NCBI GenBank assembly: GCA_902513515.1
Contig: CABXNE010000001.1
Coordinates: forward strand, 1-41,101
DNA length: 41,101 nt
Source of the DNA: an uncultured SAR86 cluster bacterium
GTDB lineage: Bacteria > Pseudomonadota > Gammaproteobacteria > Magnimaribacterales > D2472
Direction: 5' to 3'
Shown here one piece after another: positions 9,360-14,114 of the stretch. A program made the translations under genes and the position numbers. Under the pieces are notes generated by a model. That model was not told the origin of the DNA and ran no database searches. It worked only from the letters and a program-made list of their open reading frames with translations. Within the stretch, counting starts at the first letter, position 1. Every line of letters begins with the position of its first letter.

Positions 9360-9405
9360 TGGTGCCCAGAGGTGGAATCGAACCACCGACACAAGGATTT
9401 TCAGT
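9360..9405. repeat. attL: duplicate of the tRNA-Phe 3' end
   Basis: Identical over 46 bp to 14039-14084, covering CCA end, acceptor strand, T arm, variable loop and the anticodon stem-loop up to the anticodon. The sequence diverges abruptly after TTTTCAGT at 9405. The 5' half of a tRNA is absent, so this is not a functional tRNA gene. The whole gap 9287-9648 holds only this repeat, the arm-like repeats at 9453-9475 and AT-rich leader sequence. Confidence 0.9.
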
Positions 9406-9648: not shown

Positions 9649-10014
9649 ATGTCTTTATACAAAAAAATCTATAGAACTATTGAAGTTTCGCAAAATCTTA
9701 AATTGCATCAATTGAATGATGGAAGTTTTGAGATATTTTTTAGAGGCAGTCCTGGGGGATATTATTTTTGTTTTTCAGCAACGCATAAATTACTCCATCG
9801 AGTTCATAAAAGTGCATATGGCAGAGGAAAACCTGAAACAAATGAAAAAAATAATTGGCATAACCTGAAAGAGTGGTTGCAAATAGAAAATCAAAAAAAT
9901 GAATTGCCTGGCATATTAAGAAAATTTATATTATGGAAGTTCGAACCTCAGAATAAAACTCGATATATTGAAGAAAAATTGGGGTGCATCACCTACTTCA
10001 GGAAACAAGATTAA
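9649..10014 (+). CDS. Hypothetical island protein, 121 residues
   Basis: I do not recognise this protein. It is basic and aromatic-rich, with no signal peptide or membrane segment. The N-terminal half looks beta-rich (NDGSFEIFFRGSPGGYYFCF) and the C-terminal half looks helical (WHNLKEWLQIENQKNELPGI). A good Shine-Dalgarno (GGAGG, eight bases before the ATG) supports translation. It is the first gene inside the left end of the island and lies 51 bp upstream of the putative nuclease pair in the same direction, so it could share their transcript. It might be an accessory to the restriction system or unrelated cargo. Confidence 0.6.
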   Translation: MSLYKKIYRTIEVSQNLKLHQLNDGSFEIFFRGSPGGYYFCFSATHKLLHRVHKSAYGRGKPETNEKNNWHNLKEWLQIENQKNELPGILRKFILWKFEPQNKTRYIEEKLGCITYFRKQD

Positions 10015-10065: not shown

Positions 10066-10842
10066 ATGGGTTCGAATGCAGGTTTTAACAAGGAGACTAC
10101 TTTAATTAAATCAATTAATAATAAATCTTTAAAAGAAATGGATACCAGTTCAGTTATTTTGTTAAAGAAATTATTCCCAAACTATAACTTACAAGAAATA
10201 TTTTTTTCGTGTTATAAAAATGAAGGTAGGGGACTTGAAAAAAAAACTGATATTACCATCGAAGCAGGTAACCTAAAAAAAATAAATATTTCATTAAAAA
10301 GTGGTTCTAATAACTCAGTTCACCAAGAAAATATTTTTTCTTTTTTATCACTTCTTAAAGAATCCTTGCCCAACTTCAATGAGAGTGATAAAAATCTTAT
10401 TCTAAAATTTCACTGGTGTGATGGTACTTTAGATAATTCTGGGTTGGTAATAAATAGAAGCAAAAAAAAAGACTTCATAAAAAAGTTTTGCACCGATTAT
10501 GATTTATACTCTGCCTTCTTCGGAACCATTAAAGATCTCATATTTGATAGGATTATGGTCGGTTCTATTAACAGTCCAGAGTATCTTGTATATGCAAATA
10601 GTCATGGGGAATATTTGCTCTCTTCAATGACAAGAATAAAGAAGAAACATCTAGATCACGAAAGCGAATGGGGTTTATTCACATTGCAAAATTGCTGGGC
10701 ATGCTTAGGGGGGCAAGATCATGGGCATGAAAGTCATGTATGTGATTACTCATGCCCAAAAATTAAACCTAAGGCACAAAAACATCGTCAAGATATACAA
10801 TTTAAGTGGTCAAATATTGAAAATTGTTTATTGAATGAATAG
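10066..10842 (+). CDS. Putative restriction endonuclease subunit (R1), PD-(D/E)XK-like
   Basis: No family is recognised directly for this 258-residue protein. A D62...S76-L-K78 pattern, in KKTDITIEAG and ISLKSGSNNSVHQE, matches the metal-binding D-(10-20)-(D/E/S)-x-K core of PD-(D/E)XK nucleases, with an N-terminal acidic helix before it. Near the C terminus a Cys/His cluster (C210, C213, H219/H221/H224, C226, C230) looks like a zinc site. The gene lies in an island opposite two cytosine methyltransferases and overlaps the next gene by 8 bp (ATGAATAG), implying translational coupling. A role as one subunit of a restriction enzyme is inferred from context plus the weak motif. Confidence 0.6.
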   Translation: MGSNAGFNKETTLIKSINNKSLKEMDTSSVILLKKLFPNYNLQEIFFSCYKNEGRGLEKKTDITIEAGNLKKINISLKSGSNNSVHQENIFSFLSLLKESLPNFNESDKNLILKFHWCDGTLDNSGLVINRSKKKDFIKKFCTDYDLYSAFFGTIKDLIFDRIMVGSINSPEYLVYANSHGEYLLSSMTRIKKKHLDHESEWGLFTLQNCWACLGGQDHGHESHVCDYSCPKIKPKAQKHRQDIQFKWSNIENCLLNE

Positions 10843-11593
10843 AGGCACTAAAGAAGGCGAAGAGTATGAAAAAGATTTTTGTATTAGATTTAATAAAAGG
10901 GATAGCAAACTAAACTTAGATATATTGGATAATTATTCCCTTGAGAATATTTATGCTGTTCACGTGAAGTATCATAAATTTTCTTCCATAACAGAGCAAA
11001 AAGTAAAACCGAAATCTGATGCATTTCTCATAAATCTCTCAAAGGATGAGTTTGATAAGTCTAGAAGTGATAATTTTTTTCTTGATGAGGATTCTTTGAA
11101 GCATATTCAAATGCAGTTTTTGCCCGAATCTGGCATTTCTATTAAAAACTTAGACTCAAAAAAATATCAAATTCATAAATTTACATATGAGTCTTTTGTG
11201 CGAACTTTTGAAGATAAATTCCTATTTATAGGTCACCTAATTTACGAAAGAAAAAATATGATCCATAAAAATAATGAAATTTTTTATAATCTTAAAATAC
11301 CTAAAGATGTTTTCTTAAAAAAATTTGATTTTCTTCACAATGAATCTGACCCTGAAAATTTAACATATCAAAAAATAAAAACTTACTGCAAAAATCAAAT
11401 TTGTCTCGCTATTAATAATTCAAAAAAAATTCAAGATATAGTATTTTCTGGTAAAGGTGTTTTTGAAGATCCTTTTTATGCTTCATATTTTTTTCAAGAT
11501 GATGCATTAATGCCAATTAAAATTGATAAGTATAGTGTTACAACAGGAAGTGGGAGATCTCGAGGAAAATATACAATAGTTATTAAACCCTAA
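10835..11593 (+). CDS. Putative restriction endonuclease subunit (R2), PD-(D/E)XK-like
   Basis: No family is recognised by name for this 252-residue protein. It has an N-terminal acidic stretch (GEEYEKDF, residues 8-15), then D62 in KVKPKSDAFLI, then S102-I-K104 in ESGISIKNLDSKKYQIHKF. This again fits the D...(S)xK core of PD-(D/E)XK nucleases, and the SKKYQIHKF tail resembles the DNA-side strand of such folds. Its start overlaps the end of R1 by 8 bp, so equal translation of the two is likely. Its TAA overlaps the stop codon of the convergent methyltransferase gene (CTAA). Unlike R1 it has no cysteine cluster. The two proteins are not obvious paralogues, which points to a two-subunit enzyme. 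Confidence 0.6.
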   Translation: MNRGTKEGEEYEKDFCIRFNKRDSKLNLDILDNYSLENIYAVHVKYHKFSSITEQKVKPKSDAFLINLSKDEFDKSRSDNFFLDEDSLKHIQMQFLPESGISIKNLDSKKYQIHKFTYESFVRTFEDKFLFIGHLIYERKNMIHKNNEIFYNLKIPKDVFLKKFDFLHNESDPENLTYQKIKTYCKNQICLAINNSKKIQDIVFSGKGVFEDPFYASYFFQDDALMPIKIDKYSVTTGSGRSRGKYTIVIKP

Positions 11594-12576
11594 AAGGATT
11601 TATGGCATTCAACAATACTTTTCATGAGATTTTTTATAACTGGAACAGAGACTGAATTACCTATTTGCATCAAAGCATTATTATAAGAATCTGTGATTCT
11701 AAATGAATCAGGAAATCCTTGAATCCTTAACAACTCACGTATTGTAAAAAATCTCTCATAATTAACTAGATATGGGACATTATTGCCCCCAGTTCCCATC
11801 TTTGTTGTTAAACATGGTGATATCCCATCAAACCTGAAAGATGTTCTAGATTTTCTTATCTCAAAAGCAATGAGGTGATCTAAATCTTTAATTTGTTTGT
11901 AATCTTTTCTGGATTTTAAATGCTTAGATATATGAGATTTTGATAGATCACTTATGTCTTTTAATAATGGTTTTTTTTCAAGTATATCTATAATTGAATT
12001 TGTTACAGGTAAATTATTCGGAAATTCAAATTCAACTTTAGGATTTAAAAACCCAATGATAAAAATTCTTTCTCTATTTTGGGGTACACCAAAATTTTTT
12101 GAATTTAGTATTTTATAAAAAACATTATAATTAAGACTTTTTCCAGTTGCAGAGTAATTCTTACCATTAACTCTTGATGCCAAACAATCAATGATTGTTT
12201 TAAAAGTTTTTCCACCATCATGACTGGTAAGACCTCTTACATTTTCTAATATAAAAACCTTTGGTTTTTTTTCTTTAATAATTCTTACAAGGTCATAAAA
12301 TAAAGTACCCCTTACATCCTCGAAACCTTTTCTAAGACCTCCAATGCTAAATGGTTGGCATGGAAATCCTGCGCATAAAAGATCATGATCAGGAATTTCT
12401 TTTTCATTTAATTGAGTAATGTCAGAAAAAGGAAAATCATTAAAGTTTAATGAGTAAGACTCACAAACTGATTTATTAAAATCTGAACTAAATACGCACT
12501 CTGAACTACCTGGCATTGCATCCTCTATACCAAGTCTAAAACCACCAATGCCGCAGAATAAATCAATAAATTTCAA
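11590..12576 (-). CDS. DNA (cytosine-5) methyltransferase (M1)
   Basis: All key m5C methyltransferase motifs are present: I (FIDLFCGIGG, residues 3-12), IV with catalytic Cys73 in FPCQPFS, VI (ENV, Glu111), VIII (QNRER, 166-170), IX (RELLRIQGFPDSF) and X (GNSVSVPV). The target-recognition region lies between VIII and IX. The frame stays open to 12678, inside the upstream gene, but TTG at 12576 is preferred: it gives the family-typical N terminus (MKFIDLFCG), has GAGG eight bases upstream, and sits 13 bp after the upstream stop. That yields 328 residues. It methylates one strand or site of the island's restriction target; specificity cannot be read from sequence. Confidence 0.93.
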   Translation of the reverse strand: MKFIDLFCGIGGFRLGIEDAMPGSSECVFSSDFNKSVCESYSLNFNDFPFSDITQLNEKEIPDHDLLCAGFPCQPFSIGGLRKGFEDVRGTLFYDLVRIIKEKKPKVFILENVRGLTSHDGGKTFKTIIDCLASRVNGKNYSATGKSLNYNVFYKILNSKNFGVPQNRERIFIIGFLNPKVEFEFPNNLPVTNSIIDILEKKPLLKDISDLSKSHISKHLKSRKDYKQIKDLDHLIAFEIRKSRTSFRFDGISPCLTTKMGTGGNNVPYLVNYERFFTIRELLRIQGFPDSFRITDSYNNALMQIGNSVSVPVIKNLMKSIVECHKSF

Positions 12577-12589
12577 TATGTACGCCTCA

Positions 12590-13477
12590 TCAAAAGTGCT
12601 TTGATATATTTGAAAGTATGTGCGAGATAACATCAACGGTGAACCCATTTCCAACTGCTTTGTATCTCTGCGTATCACTTAGGCAATCTGTATAATTATC
12701 AGGCAAACATTGAAGTCTCTCGCACTCTAGTGGAGTCAATTTTCTTACGCCATTTTTTGTAAGGATTTTAGCAGTATCAGATCTTGCTAGGATGGTAGGA
12801 GATTTTCCGTATACAGAGTAAATTCTTCTTTGTCTTTCATTGTCTCTAATATCATCTCTAGTGGCAGTAATAATTTTTTCTATTTTGTTACTTCTAGAAT
12901 TACGCCTTTGATAAGAGAGAGATAATCTCTTTTGAACTTCTTTTTTTAAAAAGTATTTATCCTCAACATCCTCTTGCAAAATATCTATTATATTTTCAAA
13001 ATTTTCGTTTCTGGGTTCTACGAATTCTATATTTGACCAATAAATTCTAGGTCTTGATTGTGCTGAAAAAAACTTTGAATTCATTTCCAACCCCTCTACT
13101 CCTATTGCCTTATCCATCTCATATCTCCATTTGCTTTTCACGTTTTCTAAGACAAAAAACTTAGGATTTAATTTGTTTTTAATTTCAACAAACCTATGGA
13201 ATAGACTGGACCTTGAACCCACAAGTCCTTTTCCTGCAAAAGCATGACTAATGTCTTGACATGGACTCCCACCAATCAAAAAATCAATCCTGGGCAAATC
13301 CTCAAGATTGATTTTGTTTATGTCCCCAAGATGGATAATATCAGGATAGTTCTTTTTCGATACTTTTATGCAATGCTTATCTATCTCTGAAGCAAAATAG
13401 TTGTCTACAGCAATATTAAGGTTTTCTAATGCCACTCTTGAGCAGGAAATACCATCAAAAAGACTTAATACATTCAT
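12590..13477 (-). CDS. DNA (cytosine-5) methyltransferase (M2)
   Basis: A compact 295-residue m5C methyltransferase. Motif I is the LSLFDGISCSRVAL variant (residues 4-17), motif IV is GGSPCQ with Cys73, VI is ENV with Glu111, VIII is QSRPR (140-144), IX is LTPLECERLQCLPDNYT and X is KAVGNGFTVDVI. The FDGISC form of motif I and the PLECERLQ form of motif IX separate it from M1, so the two are distinct lineages rather than a recent duplication. The target-recognition stretch is short (about residues 150-250). It is first in a two-gene leftward operon with M1. No Shine-Dalgarno precedes the ATG, and a TAGAAT box lies seven bases upstream, suggesting a leaderless message. Confidence 0.93.
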   Translation of the reverse strand: MNVLSLFDGISCSRVALENLNIAVDNYFASEIDKHCIKVSKKNYPDIIHLGDINKINLEDLPRIDFLIGGSPCQDISHAFAGKGLVGSRSSLFHRFVEIKNKLNPKFFVLENVKSKWRYEMDKAIGVEGLEMNSKFFSAQSRPRIYWSNIEFVEPRNENFENIIDILQEDVEDKYFLKKEVQKRLSLSYQRRNSRSNKIEKIITATRDDIRDNERQRRIYSVYGKSPTILARSDTAKILTKNGVRKLTPLECERLQCLPDNYTDCLSDTQRYKAVGNGFTVDVISHILSNISKHF

Positions 13478-13682: not shown

Positions 13683-13965
13683 ATGTTAATGGCAAAAAAT
13701 ATAACTCAAGAATATTTGAGTAAAAGAATTATTCCTGATGGCAAACAAGAGTCAAACAAAGAATATTATTTCAAAGATGGGGTGAAAACCCTAAAAGATG
13801 GTCACTGGGAATATCTATATGATGATTCACCAAAAGCATGTAGCAAAATTTATTCTTTGTTGCTTTTGGAGGGGTTTTACCTTTGAAGAAAGATTTACTG
13901 TTGCTGATTTGAGAGAGTTGTGTGACAAGTATGAGATTGAATATTCAACAGATAACTGGTTTTGA
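13683..13965 (+). pseudogene. Small island gene with an apparent +1 frameshift
   Basis: The frame starting at 13683 (or ATG 13689) encodes 67 residues and stops at 13886. Just before the stop, at GGGGTTTT (13871-13878), dropping one T continues smoothly into the next frame as EGFTFEERFTVADLRELC and on to DNWF, ending at 13965. The joined product would be about 93 residues. Both halves look like genuine protein: charged and without low complexity. I do not recognise the family. The break could be a mutation, a sequencing error in the homopolymer, or programmed frameshifting. It is the last gene before the right island boundary. Confidence 0.55.
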
Positions 13966-14038: not shown

Positions 14039-14114
14039 TGGTGCCCAGAGGTGGAATCGAACCACCGACACAAGGATTTTCAGTCCTTTGCTCTACCGAC
14101 TGAGCTATCTGGGC
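14039..14114 (-). tRNA. tRNA-Phe (anticodon GAA)
   Basis: On the minus strand the 76-nt gene starts GCCCAGATAGCTCAG and ends with an encoded CCA. The acceptor stem is GCCCAGA/TCTGGGC with discriminator A. The anticodon loop CTGAAAA gives GAA, and the T arm is GGTGG-TTCGATT-CCACC. It is intact and complete. Its 3' 46 bp form attR of the island, so integration preserved the gene. Confidence 0.97.

What the first reader, a model, noticed from the sequence alone, without database searches (positions are those of the whole stretch)
10066..13477. Probable undescribed restriction-modification system with two nuclease subunits and two m5C methyltransferases
Two clearly different cytosine-C5 methyltransferases face two overlapping genes for unrecognised proteins. 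Each unrecognised protein has a D62...(S)xK pattern like a PD-(D/E)XK core. BbvCI is the known precedent for a restriction enzyme built from two different subunits reading an asymmetric site, where each strand needs its own methylation. Two methyltransferases plus two coupled nuclease-like genes would fit an asymmetric target here. Convergent R and M operons overlap at their stop codons (CTAA).
Basis: partly seen in the sequence, partly recalled or inferred. Interest (0 to 1): 0.75.

Follow-up and report, generated by a model that had tools for sequence, protein, structure and literature searches.

The report
Two-gene cousin of restriction enzyme AciI
This is a four-gene bacterial DNA-defence system, two probable cutters and two protecting methylases, related to the known enzyme AciI but with its two cutting halves made as separate proteins, so that each half can be tested on its own.

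Summary
R1 (10066-10842) and R2 (10835-11593) overlap by 8 nt and meet two different m5C methyltransferase genes tail to tail at CTAA.

R1 and R2 are homologous to the N- and C-terminal halves of R.AciI, a 527-aa single-chain Type IIT enzyme (site CCGC/GCGG). M1 and M2 match the two halves of the fused methylase M1~M2.AciI. The catalytic pattern D62...SxK is identical in both subunits in 14 of 14 aligned systems.

The split form is not simply a broken AciI: 10 of the 14 systems found are split, and the 4 fused ones form one clade. R1's model has the HinP1I fold (Z 16.6); R2's resembles HinP1I/MspI less surely (Z 9.3/8.2). HinP1I (GCGC) and MspI (CCGG) (sites recalled) are the two palindromes of which CCGC is the hybrid.

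Most likely target: CCGC/GCGG. The genes sit on a 4.7-kb cassette at tRNA-Phe, bounded by a 46-nt exact repeat. New variant of a known kind; specificity and activity are inferred, not shown.

The parts
10066..10842 (+). R1: nuclease subunit homologous to the N-terminal half of R.AciI; HinP1I-like fold; catalytic K60-x-D62...S76-x-K78, plus N83-S84-x-H86-Q87-E88 and R241/Q245/K247
   Evidence: PADLOC E 5.3e-10 to PDLC03402 14-183; tblastn to S. kloosii plasmid (98% covered, E 2e-6) and, weakly, pAciIRM (47% covered, E 4e-3); alignments A1, A5; 14/14 conservation; model pLDDT 78.5, HinP1I Z 16.6
10835..11593 (+). R2: nuclease subunit homologous to the C-terminal half of R.AciI; catalytic K60-S61-D62...S102-x-K104; C-terminal GSGxSxGxYTI
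   Evidence: PADLOC E 5e-30 to PDLC03402 299-526; tblastn 33.7% over 100% to pAciIRM, E 2e-26; A2, A6; conservation; model pLDDT 88.3, HinP1I Z 9.3, MspI Z 8.2
11590..12678 (-). M2: m5C methyltransferase, homologous to the second half of M1~M2.AciI; probable start TTG at 12576
   Evidence: Pfam E 2.4e-88; 48% identity to the AciI half; recognition block 22/32 identical to AciI against 125/279 elsewhere
12590..13477 (-). M1: m5C methyltransferase with a divergent catalytic domain but an AciI-type recognition block (DNERQRRxYSxxGxSPTILARSD)
   Evidence: Pfam E 1.1e-46; block 22/28 identical to AciI against 88/267 elsewhere; alignments A4, A7
10835..10842 (+). ATGAATAG: R2 start overlaps R1 stop, likely translational coupling (inferred)
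   Evidence: sequence
11590..11593 (.). CTAA: shared stop codons of convergent R2 (TAA, +) and M2 (TAG, -)
   Evidence: sequence
9360..9405 (.). left 46-nt exact copy of the 3' end of tRNA-Phe (att-like direct repeat), left boundary of the cassette
14039..14114 (-). tRNA-Phe (GAA); its 3' 46 nt (14039-14084) is the right copy of the repeat
   Evidence: ARAGORN
9649..10014 (+). 121-aa ORF upstream of R1 inside the cassette, no family match above cut-off; role unknown
13683..13886 (+). 67-aa ORF inside the cassette, no family match above cut-off; role unknown

Best explanation
A Type II (Type IIT-like) restriction-modification system, homologous to AciI, in which the two catalytic halves of the endonuclease are separate proteins from overlapping genes. 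Supported by sequence: R1 and R2 are the two AciI halves, each keeps its own D...SxK active site, and M1 and M2 are the two AciI methylase halves. Inferred (about 0.7): the target is 5'-CCGC-3'/5'-GCGG-3'; R1 and R2 together cut unmethylated sites, each subunit one strand, and M1 and M2 each put m5C on one strand, so that the host is spared. Inferred from fold: each subunit is a HinP1I/MspI-type nuclease that fits the asymmetric site in one orientation only, which would be why two nucleases and two methylases are needed. The confidence below is for the system and its kinship, not for every inferred step.
For: Split match of the 527-position PADLOC model to R1 and R2, in order. tblastn of R2 (strong) and R1 (E 2e-6 and, for AciI itself, only 4e-3) to two plasmid records, pAciIRM of A. 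citreus NEB 577 and one of S. kloosii, where both parts lie in one ORF. Catalytic residues identical in 14 of 14 for both subunits. M1 recognition block 22/28 identical to AciI against 88/267 elsewhere; M2 22/32 against 125/279. PMC8112702 (passages) gives AciI sites as CCGC/GCGG and reports CCGC methylation in NEB577, at a low detection rate (320 of 8,549 sites). The four-gene set recurs in distant phyla and a phage: 10 of 14 systems with both R parts are split. R1 model to HinP1I: Foldseek E 8.3e-9; Z 16.6, 211 aligned, rmsd 3.3; R1 profile to a 5-row HinP1I family 78.4% probability, score 42.0, against at most 21.1 in 100 column shuffles and 0.3% for the M2 family as an unrelated control.
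Against: No activity or methylome data. Specificity is carried over from AciI at 28% (R1), 35% (R2), 40% (M1) and 48% (M2) identity. R2 has no Foldseek match at E <= 0.001; its HinP1I Z of 9.3 is little above the 7 to 8 that models without a clear match typically reach; its profile does not match the HinP1I family (70 of 100 shuffles score as high). With only 3 HinP1I rows the R1 match was 50.3%. Window R1 is on the longest branch and has a 17-aa insert that 13 of 13 relatives lack, so it could have drifted. CCGC is not under-represented outside the cassette (78 observed, 73 expected): no genomic footprint of restriction.
Confidence: 0.8

Rival explanations
1. A real two-subunit AciI-type system, but with a drifted target (another asymmetric site related to CCGC), because R1, R2 and M1 have diverged.
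For: Window R1 has the longest branch in the tree and a unique insert; in two relatives (L007, L017) the M1 recognition block differs wholly (4/28 and 3/28 identical to the window's), so M1 can change while R1, R2 and M2 stay homologous.
Against: The window's M1 and M2 recognition blocks are 22/28 and 22/32 identical to AciI's, well above the rest of each protein; the blocks were picked after seeing the alignment.
Confidence: 0.22
2. As to mechanism only: the two R subunits form an obligate BbvCI-like heterodimer in which each alone is inactive, rather than two strand-specific nickases that can each bind alone.
For: Overlapping genes; one lineage (the AciI clade) has both chains fused; for BbvCI the individual subunits showed no detectable nicking or cleavage (PMC6326814, passages).
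Against: R1 (strongly) and R2 (moderately) have the fold of HinP1I and MspI; [quoted passage not shown]
Confidence: 0.5
3. A decayed or orphan system: methylases active, endonuclease split by mutation and dead.
For: A lone R2 without R1 or methylase was seen in Tissierella (L008), so loss happens in the family; R1 and R2 are separate here.
Against: Both ORFs are intact with start codons and the conserved residues; the split recurs in 10 of 14 systems, with adjacent or overlapping genes, and the fused forms are one clade (UFBoot 99/95/99).
Confidence: 0.07

Closest known systems
AciI R-M system (Arthrobacter citreus NEB 577, plasmid pAciIRM, CP053690.1)
   Same: Both nuclease halves and both methylase halves homologous; conserved nuclease residues and methylase recognition blocks kept.
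   Different: AciI is one 527-aa nuclease chain and one 703-aa double methylase, with a control (C) protein according to PMC4081073; here all four are separate genes, R and M are convergent, and no C protein was recognised.
Terrisporobacter phage TPDSL_ph1 R-M genes (PP197246.1, CDS0035-0038) and loci L010, L011, L014, L015
   Same: Same four-gene layout: R1 then R2, convergent with M2 and M1 (M1 of L011 is cut by the contig end).
   Different: Among the 13 aligned M1 proteins only L012 (Marinoscillum, 53% identity) shares the window's divergent M1 core; window R1 and R2 are only 24-34% identical to these five systems.
HinP1I (G/CGC) and MspI (C/CGG); sites recalled
   Same: Fold of R1 (Z 16.6 and 12.7) and, less surely, R2 (Z 9.3 and 8.2); HinP1I has K60-S61-D62...Q81-V-K83, aligned with R1 K60-x-D62...S76-x-K78.
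   Different: Single-gene enzymes for palindromes (recalled); here two different subunits probably serve one asymmetric site; Ser stands where HinP1I has Gln81.
BbvCI / Bpu10I (Type IIT heterodimers)
   Same: Two nuclease genes for an asymmetric site; Bpu10I is described as a chimaera of Bsu36I and BlpI (PMC6326814), as CCGC would be of CCGG and GCGC.
   Different: No sequence or fold match to BbvCI appeared in the lists seen; 7-bp target.

Membership tests
AciI-homologous restriction-modification systems | Homology of the nuclease to both halves of R.AciI | tested here: met
AciI-homologous restriction-modification systems | Two m5C methyltransferases homologous to the two halves of M1~M2.AciI, with their recognition blocks | tested here: met
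AciI-homologous restriction-modification systems | Target CCGC/GCGG | not testable with these tools
   No methylome or cleavage data; inferred from recognition blocks
AciI as characterised (single-chain R, fused M, C protein) | Both catalytic domains in one chain | tested here: not met
   Two ORFs; R1 stop at 10840-10842 overlaps the R2 start. So it is AciI-like, not an AciI of the characterised form
AciI as characterised (single-chain R, fused M, C protein) | Methylases fused in one chain | tested here: not met
   M1 and M2 are separate ORFs
AciI as characterised (single-chain R, fused M, C protein) | Control (C) protein | tested here: inconclusive
   The small ORFs at 9649-10014 and 13683-13886 match no family above cut-off; shorter ORFs were not scanned
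Type IIT restriction endonucleases | Two different catalytic sites | tested here: met
   Distinct D...SxK motifs, each identical in 14 of 14; catalysis itself not shown
Type IIT restriction endonucleases | Cleaves within or next to an asymmetric site | not testable with these tools
   Needs enzyme assay
HinP1I/MspI fold group | R1 has the fold | tested here: met
   Foldseek E 8.3e-9; Z 16.6, 211 aligned, rmsd 3.3; hhalign 78.4%, 0 of 100 shuffles as high
HinP1I/MspI fold group | R2 has the fold | tested here: inconclusive
   Z 9.3, 175 aligned, rmsd 4.2 to HinP1I; first row outside the group Z 2.4; no Foldseek match at E <= 0.001; no profile match
BbvCI/Bpu10I | Homology of subunits to BbvCI | tested here: inconclusive
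   No BbvCI chain in the sequence or fold lists; absence from a list does not exclude it

The most novel reading that the evidence does not exclude
The AciI-type nuclease is a natural hybrid of two monomeric nickases: a HinP1I-like subunit (R1, from a GCGC reader) and an MspI-like subunit (R2, from a CCGG reader) paired to read CCGC. Each binds in one orientation and nicks one strand on its own, so that the split systems are pairs of free-standing 4-base strand-specific nickases, and single-chain AciI is a later fusion.
Probability: 0.3. Interest if true: 0.6.

Novelty: new variant of a known kind. Interest (0 to 1): 0.42.

Why it matters
PMC4081073 names AciI as a single-chain enzyme with two catalytic domains; here is the same kind of machine as two separable proteins, so each half can be expressed and tested alone. 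If each half nicks by itself, this gives a pair of natural 4-base nickases and a concrete route by which palindrome-cutting monomers gave rise to an asymmetric-site enzyme. It also replaces 'unrecognised proteins' with a definite target prediction (CCGC) that one methylome or one AciI-protection assay would settle.

Tried and rejected
Rejected: two unrelated orphan methylases next to unknown genes. All four proteins match the four AciI parts, and the set recurs in other genomes.

Not upheld as the closest homologue: BbvCI/Bpu10I. No BbvCI chain appeared in PDB sequence searches (R1: no hit; R2: only weak unrelated hits such as DegP-like protease and a sialyltransferase) or in the fold lists. 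This is absence from lists only.

Led nowhere: single-protein scans of viral contigs for R1 and R2 and alignment scans found no relatives. PDLC03402 in 398 genomes of the phylum rang only in the window's own genome. R2 in 60 relatives gave the own hit and one weak partial match (E 0.009, residues 162-218); in 203 genomes of the order the own hit and two weak partial matches in one genus (E 7e-4, profile positions 115-216, no catalytic part), which I take as chance and did not follow. Pfam MspI family PF09208 in 398 genomes: nothing, and nothing in the controls, so R2 could not be compared with MspI by sequence. R1 against R2 by profile: 3.8%, so no sequence evidence that the two are duplicates. 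CCGC avoidance: none. No integrase was recognised: the two small cassette ORFs match no family; ORFs under 60 aa were not examined.

In print: searches (open-licence PubMed Central only; lists capped, titles and abstract starts seen) listed no paper on a two-gene AciI relative or on an AciI-HinP1I link. Of PMC4081073, PMC6326814 and PMC8112702 I saw passages only. REBASE was not on hand and may list putative members.

Full report
What is there. R2 starts inside the end of R1 (ATGAATAG, 10835-10842), and R2 and M2 end on the shared CTAA at 11590-11593. M2 is listed from a GTG at 12678, but in the 9 relatives a start codon lies within about ten residues before the FIDLF motif, so the TTG at 12576 is more likely.

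Who the nuclease genes are. Pfam and NCBIfam have nothing above cut-off for R1 or R2. PADLOC's REase_II model PDLC03402, 527 positions long, matches R1 with positions 14-183 (E 5.3e-10) and R2 with 299-526 (E 5e-30); its 703-position methylase model PDLC03217 matches M1 with 228-372 and M2 with 385-699 (best stretches). tblastn against 72,556 plasmid records found the same two records for R1 and for R2: the A. citreus NEB 577 plasmid named pAciIRM, where the match is one 527-aa ORF beside a 703-aa double methylase, and an S. kloosii plasmid with one 519-aa ORF beside two separate methylases. R2 hits both strongly (E 2e-26, 2e-23); R1 hits S. kloosii at E 2e-6 over 98% but AciI only at E 4e-3 over 47%; the full-length alignment gives 28% identity to AciI. 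The review PMC4081073 (passages) names AciI, M1~M2.AciI and C.AciI, and lists AciI among single-chain Type IIT enzymes with two catalytic domains. Among 50,697 phage records R2 hit one, Terrisporobacter phage TPDSL_ph1, where R1 and R2 are separate genes facing two methylases, as in the window.

How common the split is. One scan of genome contigs with the R2 alignment gave 11 loci from 54 candidate stretches. Counting the window, the two plasmids and the phage, 14 systems hold both R parts: 10 split (window, L006, L007, L009, L010, L011, L012, L014, L015, L017) and 4 fused (L004 AciI, L005, L013, L016). Left out of these 14: L008, which holds only R2, and a second, N-truncated fused copy in L016. 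Of the 13 systems with methylases on the contig, 12 have them as separate genes; only AciI has them fused. R and M are convergent in 9 of the 10 split systems and divergent in L017. In trees of R1+R2, R1 alone and R2 alone the 4 fused systems form one clade (UFBoot 99, 95, 99); the window pairs with L012 (Marinoscillum) at only 67 (R1+R2) and 77 (R2), and not in the R1 tree. One fusion in the AciI lineage is the simplest reading, but the trees are unrooted and the sample came through a pattern filter.

Catalysis. In R1 K60, D62, S76, K78, G80, N83, S84, H86, Q87, E88, R241, Q245 and K247 are identical in 14 of 14; in R2 D62, G100, S102, K104, K115 and the C-terminal G238, S239, G240, S242, G244, Y246, T247, I248 and K251 are identical in 14 of 14.

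Fold. AlphaFold2 on alignments of window and locus proteins gave R1 at pLDDT 78.5 and R2 at 88.3. R1: HinP1I by Foldseek E 8.3e-9 and MspI 1.8e-4; Z 16.6 (211 aligned, rmsd 3.3) and 12.7, next row 5.4 (HhaI endonuclease). R2: Foldseek nothing at E <= 0.001; in the second look HinP1I Z 9.3 (175 aligned, rmsd 4.2) and MspI 8.2, then 2.4. R1 against them: 50.3% and 78.4% probability; for the 5-row family the score is 42.0, and 0 of 100 column shuffles of R1 reach it (maximum 21.1). R2 against them: 0.3% and 0.1%, with 70 of 100 shuffles as high. The M2 family as an unrelated control: 0.3%. HinP1I has K60-S61-D62 and Q81-V-K83; its D and its QxK line up with R1 D62 and S76-x-K78. So R1 is related to HinP1I with good support; R2 rests on a moderate fold match alone.

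Target. M1's block DNERQRR...DTAKIL is 22/28 identical to AciI, against 88/267 elsewhere; M2's block is 22/32 against 125/279. I chose these blocks after seeing the alignment, so the contrast is partly by selection; they lie where m5C enzymes carry their recognition domain (recalled). PMC8112702 (passages) gives AciI sites as CCGC/GCGG and reports methylation at CCGC in NEB577, though at only 320 of 8,549 sites. The most likely target is thus CCGC. CCGC is not avoided in the window outside the cassette (78 observed, 73 expected, rank 107 of 136 tetramers from the most depleted); this fits a recent arrival but supports nothing.

Mechanism proposed. [quoted passage not shown] On a palindrome one protein can bind in either orientation. 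On CCGC/GCGG a given subunit would fit in one orientation only, so two different subunits are needed for a double-strand cut, and likewise two methylases. CCGC is the hybrid of CCGG (MspI) and GCGC (HinP1I) (sites recalled), as Bpu10I is described as a chimaera of Bsu36I and BlpI (PMC6326814). Which subunit reads which half, and whether each nicks alone, is not shown.

Mobility. The four genes lie on a cassette between a 46-nt exact copy of the tRNA-Phe 3' end (9360-9405) and tRNA-Phe itself (14039-14114). In G407 (L039) and G403 (L031) sequence homologous to the window up to 9405 runs straight into tRNA-Phe with no insert, though the flanks of L031 are otherwise rearranged. The other 9 of the 11 relatives' loci fetched have 0.7 to 5.1 kb of other sequence in the corresponding interval; as gene order varies, not all of it need be inserted cargo. 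No full R2 match other than the window's own was found in 60 relatives or 203 genomes of the order, many of them incomplete drafts. No recombinase was recognised inside the cassette.

Verdict. A real, probably intact, two-subunit AciI-type restriction-modification system: a new variant of a known kind.

Noticed in passing
window 9360-9405 and 14039-14084: A 46-nt exact direct repeat of the tRNA-Phe 3' end bounds the 4.7-kb cassette, as integrases leave, but no integrase was recognised between the copies.
   Followed up: partly
L029, L030, L032-L038 beside tRNA-Phe: In 9 of 11 relatives' loci the interval beside the same tRNA-Phe holds other, differing ORFs (0.7-5.1 kb), so the site may be a variable hotspot in this genus.
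   Followed up: partly
window 10708-10758 (R1 residues 215-231): A 17-aa insert with two Cys and three His, just after C210-x-x-C213; absent from 13 of 13 relatives. It could bind zinc. Modelled with low confidence.
   Followed up: partly
L007:2769-3836 and L017:1307-2425: M1 has a wholly different recognition block (GGNW...NHSN...KSMIIH) while R1, R2 and M2 stay homologous: M1 replaced or target changed.
   Followed up: no
window outside the cassette and relatives L029-L039: GGCC is among the two most under-represented tetramers (O/E 0.72 in the window, 0.66 in relatives), and the cassette has none.
   Followed up: no
L006 (phage TPDSL_ph1, PP197246.1): A bacteriophage genome carries a complete split AciI-like four-gene set.
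   Followed up: no
L016:44-1144 and 1206-2846: Tandem fused AciI-like nucleases, the first lacking its N-terminal part, with no methylase on the 4.6-kb contig.
   Followed up: no
L008:6004-6660: A lone R2 relative in Tissierella creatinophila, without R1 or methylases found within the 12.7 kb seen; looks like a relic.
   Followed up: partly
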